The notes under the pieces were generated by a model. That model saw only the letters and a program-made list of their open reading frames with translations. It made no database searches and was not told where the DNA came from. The position numbers were made by a program, and so were the translations under genes. Shown piece after piece: positions 9,856 through 13,180 of a stretch of 64,000 nucleotides of DNA. The stretch comes from Nitrospinota bacterium (GTDB lineage Bacteria > Nitrospinota_A > UBA7883 > JACRGQ01), in the NCBI GenBank assembly GCA_029881495.1, contig JAOUMJ010000001.1:62001-126000 (forward strand), written 5' to 3'. Numbering within the stretch: position 1 is the first letter of the stretch; each line of letters starts with the position of its first letter.

Positions 9856-10019
9856 TTATAATGCTGATGGTGTTTTTGTGAGGATTCGAAAGCGAGTTTC
9901 CGGTTGCGACCGAAAAGGGAGCAGCGCCAAACAGGACGTTTGGCGAGGAAACGAGTCGGGGTCGAGCGAGCGATTTCAGGAGAAATCGCGAGAGTGACCG
10001 AATCCTCTTGGGCGCGCCA
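9856..10019 (+). repeat. tRNA-linked structured repeat, Arg type, copy 1
   Basis: This 164-base unit starts right after the CCA of tRNA-Arg and ends with CGAATCCTCTTGGGCGCGCCA-like sequence identical to the tRNA 3' end (T-arm 3' strand, acceptor, CCA). It contains an outer arm GAGGATTCG that pairs with the tRNA-derived CGAATCCTC. It also has an inner pair GTTTCC/GGAAAC, a small hairpin CGGT-TGCG-ACCG, a hairpin CGCCAAAC/GTTTGGCG with loop AGGAC, and a hairpin GCGATTTC/GAAATCGC with loop AGGA nested in GGTC/GACC. It does not look protein-coding. I do not recognise the family. Confidence 0.9.
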
Positions 10020-10183
10020 TTATAATGCTGATGGTGTTCTTGCGAGGATTCGAAAGCGAGTTTCCGGTTGCGACCGAAAAGGGAGCAACGCCAAACAGGA
10101 CGTTTGGCGAGGAAACGAGTCGGGGTCGAGCGAGCGATTTCAGGAGAAATCGCGAGAGTGACCGAATCCTCTTGGGCGCGCCA
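10020..10183 (+). repeat. tRNA-linked structured repeat, Arg type, copy 2
   Basis: This is a second 164-base unit in exact tandem with the first. I see only about three substitutions (in the spacer before the 5' arm and one in the AGCAGCG/AGCAACG linker), none of which break a hairpin. It again ends with the tRNA-Arg 3' end including CCA. The near identity points to a recent duplication. Confidence 0.92.
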
Positions 10184-10224
10184 TTGTTATTCGAAGAATA
10201 CCGGCGTTGTGTAACAGGATATCC

Positions 10225-10314
10225 GGAGAGGTGGCCGAGCGGTTGAAGGCGTACGCCTGGAAAGTGTATGTGCGGGAAACCGTACCGGGGGTTCGAATCC
10301 CCCCCTCTCCGCCA
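10225..10314 (+). tRNA. tRNA-Ser (anticodon GGA)
   Basis: A 90-base class II tRNA with acceptor GGAGAGG/CCTCTCC, a long variable arm (TGTGCGGGAAACCGTA), T loop TTCGAAT and encoded CCA. The anticodon stem-loop TACGC-CTGGAAA-GTGTA gives GGA, reading UCC and UCU. It is followed directly by a long member of the tRNA-linked repeat family. Confidence 0.95.
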
Positions 10315-10604
10315 TTTTCAATAAATGGGATTCAAAACAAGCTTCCTTTATTTCTCCAGCAGAGCGAAGTTTCTGCGAATACGGCGTTAGCCGCACGGAG
10401 CTAAACGCGAATCGTCGGCCCGAGCAGACAGCGAGGGCAAATTGACACGACGTGCACGCGAGGGTAGGCGAATCCTTCTTCCCTTTCCGCCTTCTCTTCT
10501 CTTCCTTTTTCAAACAAGACGTTTGGCAAGGAAACGAATTTGGGTCAAGTGAGCGATTTCAGGAGAAATCGCGAGAGTGACCGATCCCCCCCCTCTCTCC
10601 GCCA
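10315..10604 (+). repeat. tRNA-linked structured repeat, Ser(GGA) type, long form
   Basis: This 290-base unit follows tRNA-Ser(GGA) and ends with a copy of a tRNA-Ser 3' end (CTCTCTCCGCCA, at 10593-10604). Its 5' half (GGGATTC arm, then a CGGC-GTTA-GCCG hairpin inside GCGTTAGC/GCTAAACGC) closely matches the unit at 12926-13180. Its 3' half holds the CAAAC-AAGAC-GTTTG hairpin and the GCGATTTC-AGGA-GAAATCGC hairpin of the Arg type. A pyrimidine-rich insert lies between. It therefore looks like a hybrid of two family members. Confidence 0.85.
10445..10583 (+). repeat. 139-bp direct repeat, left copy, flanking a two-gene cassette
   Basis: The stretch starting ACACGACGTGCACGCGAGGG and ending GCGAGAGTGACCG recurs at 12391-12529 with only about two differences. 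It lies within the Ser(GGA)-type unit and includes both hairpins with AAGAC and AGGA loops. With its partner it brackets the DUF4386 and NAD(P)-binding genes in the same orientation. Confidence 0.9.
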
Positions 10605-10844
10605 GCCGCAGAAAGACCCTTTCGGATTGAAAAACTGCAAAAGATCCTGAAAAAATATCGGCTCGAAAATACTTTTGATCCAAAAACGAGCTTCTATTAT
10701 TTTTAGTTGGACTACTTCCATTTTCCTTGTTACTACATATACTGAAAACTTAAACAAGCACCCAACAATGACGAAACAATTAAGGATTAGCTTTGATGAT
10801 TCATTGAAATAAAATTTATGGTAAATATAGCAACGGGAAAAATT

Positions 10845-11543
10845 ATGAATTTTGAAAGAAAGATCGCCAGAATAGCCGGAACACTTTTTATTATTGGCAC
10901 GGTTGCGGGCATACTAAGCATTGCTCCAGCTATAGATGCTCCTGATTATCTTACTAAAGCTTCTGAAAATGCTAATCAAGTATTAAAAGGAGCATTTTTC
11001 CAGTTTATTATGGCGGTTGCATATATTGGATTTGCAATTTTGTTGTACCCAATTCTAAGAAGATATAATGAAAGTCTTGCAATTGGATTTGTTGGTTTCA
11101 GGTTTATTGCTGGAGTATTCAACATTATTGGTGTAACAAGCATCCTACTACTATTGACATTAAGTCAGGAGTTTACAAAAGCTCCTAATTTAAATTCATC
11201 CTATTTTCATACTTTAGGTGAATTATTGCTGGCTGGACGAGATTTCGTGGACCATGTGGCAATGATACTGGCACAAAGCATAGGCAGCATAATGTGTTAC
11301 TACATCCTCTATCAAACAATGCTGGTTCCTCGATGGTTATCCGTATGGGGTTTAGCTGGAGCCACTTTGACTATATTTGCAAGCTTTCTTGTAATGTTCC
11401 ATCTAATCGGTATTATTACGCCGGTTTACCTTGCTCTGCTCCTTCCGTTGGCATTACAAGAAATGTTTTTGGCGGTATGGCTGATTGTAAAAGGGTTTAA
11501 TCAATCTGTGGTCATTTTTGAAAACTCAAGAACGGCATATTAA
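10845..11543 (+). CDS. DUF4386 family membrane protein
   Basis: This is a multi-pass membrane protein of the DUF4386 family, whose function is unknown. The ATG at 10845 gives MNFERKIARIAGTLFIIG, the usual family N-terminus; an earlier in-frame ATG at 10818 adds nine residues. The 232 residues form about six hydrophobic helices with RFIAGVFNIIGV and LAGRDFVDHVAMIL loops. Base composition is much lower in GC than the flanking genes, which supports recent acquisition. It ends 6 bases before the next cargo gene. Confidence 0.8.
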   Translation: MNFERKIARIAGTLFIIGTVAGILSIAPAIDAPDYLTKASENANQVLKGAFFQFIMAVAYIGFAILLYPILRRYNESLAIGFVGFRFIAGVFNIIGVTSILLLLTLSQEFTKAPNLNSSYFHTLGELLLAGRDFVDHVAMILAQSIGSIMCYYILYQTMLVPRWLSVWGLAGATLTIFASFLVMFHLIGIITPVYLALLLPLALQEMFLAVWLIVKGFNQSVVIFENSRTAY

Positions 11544-12239: not shown

Positions 12240-12390
12240 AGATTGATAAAACGTATTCTGAAAATTAAGAAAGAATTTAGTCGCTAAAGAAATACTTGAA
12301 ATCGTCCAATCCTAAAGATGCGATTCTGTGGGCGTTAAGATGTTCTTGTCCCCGTTTCTTTTTATTTTTAATCAATACAGGAAAGCGGGC

Positions 12391-12529
12391 ACACGACGTG
12401 CACGCGAGGGTAGGCGAATCCTTCTTCCCTTTCCGCCTTCTCTTCTCTTCCTTCTTCAAACAAGACGTTTGGCGAGGAAACGAATTTGGGTCAAGTGAGC
12501 GATTTCAGGAGAAATCGCGAGAGTGACCG
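12391..12529 (+). repeat. 139-bp direct repeat, right copy
   Basis: A nearly perfect copy of 10445-10583, in the same orientation, directly after the cargo genes. It ends GAGTGACCG followed by CTCCCCCCAT, a degenerate remnant of the tRNA-Ser 3' end seen after the left copy. The rest of 12240-12649 shows no gene. Confidence 0.9.
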
Positions 12530-12649
12530 CTCCCCCCATCTATTCCCTGCACCCCTCATTTCCGCAAATCCAGGGACTTAAAAAAAATATCATCGAGAGA
12601 TGGTATCGGAATATGGAAATGGGATAAGCTATCACCCTGAACTTGAAAC

Positions 12650-12740
12650 GGAGAGATGGCCGAGTTGGCTGAAGGCGTTGGTCTCGAAAACCAATGTGCG
12701 GGAAACCGTACCGGGGGTTCGAATCCCTCTCTCTCCGCCA
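12650..12740 (+). tRNA. tRNA-Ser (anticodon CGA)
   Basis: A 91-base class II tRNA with acceptor GGAGAGA/TCTCTCC, a long variable arm identical to that of tRNA-Ser(GGA), T loop TTCGAAT and encoded CCA. The anticodon stem-loop TTGGT-CTCGAAA-ACCAA gives CGA, reading UCG. Two further repeat units follow. Confidence 0.95.
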
Positions 12741-12925
12741 TTTTTGCGAAAGAGGCATAGGCCTCTTACGTAAAAATAATAGATAAGGTCGGGATTCGAA
12801 CGCGGACTGGCGGCCCGAGCGGATAGCGAGGGCAAATTGACACGACGTCAATTTAGCCAGGGAGTCGGGGCCGATGGAGCGTTGCAGGAGCAACGCGAGA
12901 GTGGCCGATCCCTCTCTCTCCGCCA
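12741..12925 (+). repeat. tRNA-linked structured repeat, Ser(CGA) type, copy 1
   Basis: This 185-base unit starts after the CCA with an AAAGAGGCATAGGCCTCTT palindrome. It carries a GGGATTCGAA arm complementary to the tRNA-Ser T-arm, a hairpin AAATTGAC/GTCAATTT with loop ACGAC, and a hairpin GCGTTGC/GCAACGC with loop AGGA nested in GGCC/GGCC. It ends in ATCCCTCTCTCTCCGCCA, the 3' end of tRNA-Ser(CGA). The loops match the Arg-type unit but the stems differ completely. Confidence 0.9.
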
Positions 12926-13180
12926 TTTTTACGAAAGAGGCATAGGCCTCTTGCGTGAAAATAATAGATAAGGTCGGGATTCAAAACAAGCTTCCTTAAT
13001 TTCTCCAACAGAGCGAAGTTTCTGCGAGTACGGCGTTAGCCGCACGGAGCTAAACGCGAGTTTCCGTTTGCGAGCGGATAGCGAGGGCAAATTGACACGA
13101 CGTCAATTTAGCCAGGGAGTCGGGGCCGATGGAGCGTTGCAGGAGCAACGCGAGAGTGGCCGATCCCTCCCTCTCCGCCA
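12926..13180 (+). repeat. tRNA-linked structured repeat, Ser(CGA) type, copy 2 (long form)
   Basis: A 255-base unit repeating the spacer and palindrome of copy 1, then the long-form insert (CGGCGTTAGCCG hairpin region) shared with the Ser(GGA) unit, then the same ACGAC-loop and AGGA-loop hairpins as copy 1. It ends CTCCCTCTCCGCCA, again a tRNA-Ser 3' end. It stops 21 bases before the recG stop codon. Confidence 0.9.

What the first reader, a model, noticed from the sequence alone, without database searches (positions are those of the whole stretch)
9856..13180. Unrecognised family of tRNA-linked repeats that each end in a copy of the upstream tRNA's 3' end
After tRNA-Arg(GCG), tRNA-Ser(GGA) and tRNA-Ser(CGA) come units of 164, 164, 290, 185 and 255 bases, plus a remnant at 12391-12529. 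Each unit ends with the 3' T-arm strand, acceptor strand, discriminator and CCA of the tRNA it follows, so a block of tRNA 3' end plus unit is repeated in tandem. Nothing in it looks like a protein gene. I do not know a described family with this layout. Plausible explanations are a small integrative element that targets tRNA 3' ends, retrocopying primed on tRNA, or an extended structured transcript read through from the tRNA.
Basis: seen in the sequence. Interest (0 to 1): 0.92.

Follow-up and report, generated by a model that had tools for sequence, protein, structure and literature searches.

The report
Repeats that mirror their host tRNA
Downstream of many tRNA genes (and of tmRNA) in a family of Nitrospinota bacteria, and in other phyla, sits a roughly 160-base non-coding element whose conserved folded core is framed by an inverted and a direct copy of that particular tRNA's 3' end; it looks like an undescribed kind of mobile repeat that rebuilds its ends from each tRNA it settles behind.

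Summary
Units follow at least 14 tRNA/tmRNA genes in this genome. A covariance model finds them in all 11 genomes of the family (117 units) and in none of 12 other genomes of the class; 98 of 107 units with readable upstream DNA lie 3' of a tRNA or tmRNA on the same strand. Homologs occur in 14 of 51 genomes of another phylum and in Spirochaetes and Clostridiales MAG contigs. It often follows a palindrome starting at the first base after the tRNA, absent behind unit-less tRNAs (27/63 versus 0/35). The core is a conserved hairpin fold. Cores cluster by genome rather than by host tRNA, so they spread between tRNAs while both arms are remade. Stems show little RNA-type G·U tolerance (GU:AC 61:26; tRNA control 62:1), favouring DNA-level hairpins. 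Reverse transcriptase is absent from most carrier genomes. No Rfam family matches. The E. coli tyrT/rtT repeats share the layout but not the core. Best reading: a mobile palindromic DNA element with host-templated arms. How it moves is unproven.

The parts
9779..9855 (+). tRNA-Arg(GCG), host of units 1 and 2
   Evidence: ARAGORN; Rfam
9856..10019 (+). unit 1 (block: spacer, inverted arm, core, tail copy)
   Evidence: (CM 138 bits)
9880..9890 (+). inverted arm of unit 1, GAGGATTCGAA = reverse complement of the tRNA T-loop/T-stem 3' strand (T54 onwards)
9891..9998 (+). conserved folded core of unit 1 (P2, P3 with GA..CC-GAAAA-GG..GA, P4 AGGAC loop, P5, P6)
9999..10019 (+). direct copy of C56-A76 of tRNA-Arg(GCG)
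10020..10183 (+). unit 2, tandem copy of unit 1 (inverted arm 10044-10054, tail copy 10163-10183)
   Evidence: (CM 139 bits)
10225..10314 (+). tRNA-Ser(GGA), host of unit 3
10315..10604 (+). unit 3, composite and partly degenerate (CM hit 10467-10590)
12391..12537 (+). remnant unit (CM hit 12408-12536), sister of unit 3 in the tree
12650..12740 (+). tRNA-Ser(CGA), host of units 4 and 5
12741..12776 (+). palindromic spacer TTTTTGCGAAAGAGGC-ATAG-GCCTCTTACGTAAAAA that starts at the first base after CCA
12741..12925 (+). unit 4 (inverted arm 12790-12800, tail copy 12906-12925)
12926..13180 (+). unit 5 (CM hit 13044-13169, tail copy 13161-13180); its 5' part is altered as in unit 3

Best explanation
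A non-coding, non-autonomous mobile DNA element of about 100-110 bp core that settles directly 3' of tRNA and tmRNA genes. SHOWN: the core is homologous between units behind different tRNAs and folds the same way; each copy is framed by an inverted copy (from T54) and a direct copy (from C56) of the 3' end of its own host tRNA; blocks of spacer/palindrome-inverted arm-core-tail repeat in tandem and differ in number between species at one tRNA locus. INFERRED: the core moves between tRNA genes as DNA, with its hairpins and palindromes as the recognised or facilitating structure. The arms are remade at each move because the ends of the core carry only the T-loop motif common to nearly all tRNAs (TYGAA on the left, CRA on the right). 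A strand that copies the host tail folds back at the palindrome behind the tRNA and copies the tail in reverse up to T54. It then switches at the shared T-loop motif onto a donor core, copies it, and switches back at the T-loop onto the host tail. Since the tail is restored, the tRNA stays intact. Homologous recombination between tail copies then amplifies or deletes blocks. The protein involved, if any, is unknown.
For: Host matching of arms well above a control with other tRNAs' tails; the inverted arm reaches into acceptor and CCA in many units (permutation test: mean 8.6 against a maximum of 6.9 in 400 permutations), nearly perfectly in L117 (G007 tRNA-Arg) and perfectly in L212 (tRNA-Ala). 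Palindrome at CCA+1 in 27/63 unit loci, 0/35 unit-less tRNAs, 0 shuffles. Covariation: 38 of 39 pairs with compensatory changes, covariation score 0.565 against at most 0.10 for slid structures; seen again in an alignment drawn mainly from the second phylum. Cores cluster by genome (57 label changes, shuffled mean 80, minimum 73; one genome per genus 32 against 54), and much less by host tRNA once one genome per genus is used (56 against 62.5). GU:AC 61:26 and 22:13 in unit stems against 62:1 in tRNA stems, so stems change as Watson-Crick pairs. Strong ssDNA folding, z -3.4 to -9.1. At the orthologous tRNA-Leu(CAA) locus of one genus: 0 units and no palindrome in G423, 1 in G427, 2 in G424, 2 full plus a truncated third in G431.
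Against: No insertion was caught in the act and no enzyme is linked to the units. Y1/HUH transposase genes are patchy and not flanked by units except two lying near units by gene order. Within one genus orthologous cores are about 90% identical while the spacer and downstream flank are often near the random baseline, which could mean selection on resident copies, that is, a host function. Some GU excess over AC remains. The template-switch steps are deduced from junction positions only; some tail copies and arms are truncated on one side (inverted and direct acceptor copies are anticorrelated, rho -0.56), which the model does not predict by itself.
Confidence: 0.5

Rival explanations
1. Functional structured RNA: the unit is transcribed with the tRNA (read-through) or on its own and acts as an RNA, for example in tRNA 3' maturation, termination or as an sRNA; the arms are kept complementary by selection on P1.
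For: Conserved fold with purine-rich conserved loops on one strand; cores more conserved than flanks at orthologous loci; E. coli rtT repeats are annotated as ncRNA rttR.
Against: GU:AC ratio far from that of tRNA stems; among orthologs most stem changes break pairs (35 broken, 10 one-sided and 11 two-sided compatible); many units lie behind a terminator-like hairpin; selection on P1 does not explain copies of acceptor and CCA; cores group by genome, not by tRNA.
Confidence: 0.22
2. REP/RAYT-like element: ssDNA hairpins moved in trans by a Y1 (HUH) transposase, with the arm acting as a target-pairing guide as in IS200/IS605.
For: Hairpins fold strongly as ssDNA; Y1_Tnp genes in 7 of 11 family genomes, several RAYT-like by eye.
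Against: No unit beside the RAYT-like genes; no Y1_Tnp match in four carrier genomes, G002, G006, G008, G009; the small Y1-like protein behind gltX is conserved in non-carriers too; a fixed guide does not explain arms that differ for each host.
Confidence: 0.15
3. Scars of tyrosine-integrase islands: duplicated attB (T-loop to CCA) left by integration and deletion of larger elements.
For: Identity block C56-A76 is the usual T-loop attB of tRNA integrases (general knowledge).
Against: Scars would not share one folded core behind 27 tRNA types plus tmRNA, nor hold an inverted copy of the tail; no integrase is apparent among the window ORFs from 5 to 18 kb (by inspection only).
Confidence: 0.07
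4. Retrotransposition primed on the tRNA or its terminator hairpin by a reverse transcriptase.
For: A tail followed by a terminator hairpin and then the reverse complement of the tail is what self-primed copying of a pre-tRNA would give.
Against: RVT_1 absent in 10/11 family carriers and 11/14 carriers of the second phylum; an extinct enzyme cannot be excluded.
Confidence: 0.05

Closest known systems
E. coli tyrT/tyrV rtT (rttR) repeats, Rfam RF00391
   Same: Tandem 178-bp units behind a tRNA, each ending in the last 19 nt of the tRNA and holding an inverted copy of the T-stem strand (GGAAGGAT) 45-60 nt after the tRNA, followed by a hairpin-rich core. Some family units share the GAG-AA variant after the arm (L169, L162; G133).
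   Different: rtT seen here at one tRNA locus only. RF00391 does not match the window genome and model R1 gives only noise on the E. coli locus, not centred on the repeats. Here one core serves 27 tRNA types plus tmRNA and spans phyla.
REP/BIME and RAYT systems
   Same: Short intergenic hairpins, tandem, non-autonomous, probably acting as folded ssDNA.
   Different: REPs are not tied to tRNA 3' ends and carry no copies of the neighbouring gene; no RAYT linkage found.
MITEs and other non-autonomous terminal-inverted-repeat elements
   Same: Short, multicopy, flanked by inverted repeats.
   Different: MITE ends belong to the element and are constant; here the inverted ends are host sequence and change with each target.
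Integron attC sites
   Same: Folded single-strand hairpins conserved in structure more than in sequence.
   Different: No cassette genes or integrase linked; the T-loop GTTCRAN does not fit the GTTRRRY core (general knowledge; not searched).
tRNA-targeting integrative elements (T-loop attB)
   Same: Restores the tRNA 3' end by a copy of T-loop to CCA.
   Different: No integrase and no large cargo; has an inverted tail copy and a shared core across all host tRNAs.

Membership tests
rtT repeats (RF00391) | match to the Rfam covariance model | tested here: not met
   no match in the window or own genome at E<=1; E. coli control positive
rtT repeats (RF00391) | tandem units each ending in the tRNA 3' end, with inverted T-stem copy | tested here: met
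rtT repeats (RF00391) | transcribed as an RNA processed from the tRNA precursor | not testable with these tools
   no RNA data available
REP/RAYT | RAYT gene flanked by the repeats | tested here: not met
   no unit near the RAYT-like genes of carriers; the two units found lie at tRNA-Ser and tRNA-Met next to other genes
REP/RAYT | GTAG tetranucleotide 5' of the hairpin | not tested
   not scanned systematically
MITE | element-specific constant terminal inverted repeats | tested here: not met
   arms match the host tRNA and differ between hosts
MITE | related transposase-bearing element | tested here: inconclusive
   no ORF within units; flanks not searched exhaustively
Retroelement (group II intron, retron, DGR) | reverse transcriptase in the genome | tested here: not met
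   RVT_1 absent in 10/11 and 11/14 carriers
Tyrosine-integrase genomic island | integrase gene beside the attachment site | tested here: inconclusive
   none apparent in ORFs of window 5-18 kb (by inspection)
Known structured RNA (any Rfam family) | gathering-score match over the unit | tested here: not met

The most novel reading that the evidence does not exclude
A multi-phylum class of mobile DNA elements that carry no ends of their own: each insertion copies the host tRNA's 3' end in both orientations, using the universal T-loop sequence as the only shared homology, so one core can colonise tRNA genes of many kinds, and tmRNA, without harming them.
Probability: 0.4. Interest if true: 0.92.

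Novelty: categorically new. Interest (0 to 1): 0.82.

Why it matters
Mobile elements normally carry fixed ends and accept whatever target. Here the ends are rewritten to mirror the target, which would be a new solution to the problem of inserting into essential genes. It would also give the E. coli rtT repeats, which share the layout, a wider context, and it makes tRNA 3' ends a testable place to study palindrome-driven template switching. The family is easy to search for with the covariance models built here.

Tried and rejected
Known RNA family: rejected. E. coli rtT as direct homolog: model R1 gave only noise there, top hit 15 bits and not centred on the repeats. Reverse transcriptase as mover: absent from most carriers. 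RAYT/Y1 transposase: present in some carriers but not linked; the conserved small Y1-like protein behind gltX looked attractive but also occurs in genomes without units. Phage/virus origin: no pattern matches in viral contigs (two narrow patterns only). Four pattern matches in other genomes (L209, L210, L213, L214) were chance: only short or weak model matches and no tRNA. Literature: full-text searches for the layout found nothing relevant, but the library lacks most subscription papers; two searches were malformed.

Full report
WHAT IS THERE. A search of the window's own genome showed that these are a few of many: units follow tRNA-Arg(GCG), Arg(TCT), Arg(CCG), Ser(GGA), Ser(CGA), Ala(GGC), Gln(CTG), Lys(CTT), Glu(TTC), Pro(CGG), Gly(CCC), two Met genes and tmRNA, intact or as remnants.

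ANATOMY. In an intact unit the order is: tRNA 3' end; spacer; inverted copy of the T-loop and T-stem 3' strand that starts exactly at T54 (…TCGAA or …TTGAA); core of about 100-110 bases; direct copy of the tRNA from C56, in many cases to CCA. Arms fit the host: direct tail at least 17/22 in 47% of units and inverted arm at least 11/12 in 51%, against 0.4% and 1.6% with tails of other tRNAs. The inverted copy often continues through the acceptor to TGG (the reverse of CCA): host-matched pairing score 8.6 on average against at most 6.9 in 400 permutations. Inverted and direct acceptor copies are anticorrelated (Spearman -0.56, p 2e-7): a unit seldom keeps both. In 27 of 63 first units the spacer is a palindrome that begins within four bases of CCA (nearly always at the first base), against 0 of 35 tRNAs without units and 0 shuffles. 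In many it looks like an intrinsic terminator, but in the window unit 4 and behind Arg(TCT) the T-run comes first, so termination alone does not explain it. A homolog behind tRNA-Ala in a Spirochaetes MAG (L212) shows the pattern almost perfectly: tail, terminator hairpin, exact reverse complement of the tail, core, partial tail, terminator again.

FOLD. Fifteen units gave a structure of six helices with 29 of 39 pairs changed on both sides. On 117 units 38 of 39 pairs show compensatory change, 86% of cells pair against at most 45% for slid structures; an alignment mostly from the second phylum repeats this. These two larger alignments were fitted to the model and so lean towards it. The most constant part is CGACCG-NN-AGGGAG (P3, with G·A mismatches) and hairpin loops of the type AGGAN. 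Units fold strongly as single-stranded DNA (z -3.4 to -9.1). Stems contain G·U and A·C mismatches at 61:26 and 22:13, whereas tRNA stems from the same loci give 62:1. Stems therefore change mostly as Watson-Crick pairs, which points to DNA rather than RNA, although a mild GU excess remains.

DISTRIBUTION. Model R1 hits all 11 family genomes (3 to 22 hits each at E<=0.001) and none of 12 other genomes of the class. Of 107 units with enough upstream sequence, 98 have a tRNA or tmRNA upstream on the same strand within 500 bases, mostly 44-72 bases away. Model R2 over 385 genomes added only two, both in family f117; their phylum has hits in 14 of 51 genomes, nearly all behind tRNA or tmRNA. A pattern scan of genome contigs added MAG contigs labelled Spirochaetes and Clostridiales; a MAG label can be wrong. 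The phylum of G270 is not named by the tools.

MOVEMENT. In a tree of cores, units at the same tRNA in sister species group together (His, Leu, Val, Met, Gln), but across genera they group by genome and not by tRNA (genome label 57 changes, shuffled mean 80, minimum 73; host tRNA with one genome per genus 56 against 62.5; few columns, so many forks are unresolved). The core has thus been copied between tRNAs within lineages, with both arms remade. At one orthologous tRNA-Leu(CAA) locus in one genus, G423 has neither unit nor palindrome, G427 one unit, G424 two, G431 two full units and a truncated third. The G424/G427 pair differs by exactly one block ending at the tail copy. Blocks in a tandem array share spacer, core and tail, as unequal recombination between tails would give.

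HOW IT MAY WORK. The junctions fall at the edges of the only sequence nearly all tRNAs share, the T-loop TTCRA: the left arm ends at T54 and the direct copy starts at C56. That suggests strand switching there, with fold-back at the palindrome behind the tRNA. This is inference. Reverse transcriptase is not needed in most carriers; Y1 transposases are patchy and unlinked. Against a purely selfish reading, orthologous cores are about 90% identical where spacers and downstream flanks are often near the random baseline. On the other hand most stem changes between orthologs break pairs (35 against 21 kept), which is more like decay than like selection on a structure. A host function is therefore not excluded.

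COMPARISON. The layout has one precedent: the E. coli tyrT/tyrV repeats. Read here from K-12, they carry the last 19 bases of tRNA-Tyr, an inverted T-stem copy GGAAGGAT, and a hairpin-rich core. They are not members of this family, but may be the same kind of thing with another core. The claim of novelty rests on the sequence evidence and on open-access literature only.

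Noticed in passing
window 10605-12390: Two genes (DUF4386 membrane protein 10818-11543; NAD(P)H-binding/NmrA-like 11550-12239) sit between unit 3 and its sister remnant, as if inserted into a former tandem array; possibly cargo or a separate insertion.
   Followed up: partly
L190 1382-1810 (G000:C8), L189 1403-1771 (G007:C62): A small conserved Y1_Tnp-like protein encoded directly behind gltX, apparently with degraded HUH motif and no clear catalytic tyrosine; conserved in most of the class, so a possibly domesticated transposase relative not tied to the units.
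   Followed up: partly
L182 (E. coli K-12 tyrT/tyrV): The rtT repeats hold an inverted T-stem copy GGAAGGAT-GAGAAG besides the tail copy; the same GAG-AA variant follows the arm in some Nitrospinota units (L169, L162) and in G133.
   Followed up: partly
L241, L242, L260: In the second phylum some units contain nested smaller hairpin domains (CCCGACTGAATAAAGAGGAA and similar) inside the P4 region and a further repeat (ATATTAAACTTTTATTAAAAAATC and similar) inserted in cores; the element seems to insert into itself and to attract other repeats.
   Followed up: no
L032 (G000:C1, behind tRNA-Glu(TTC)): A separate direct repeat of about 104 bases (GATTTAGCTAACGCCATTGATTGAAAGTGGTTGTG and on) in three near-identical copies follows the unit.
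   Followed up: no
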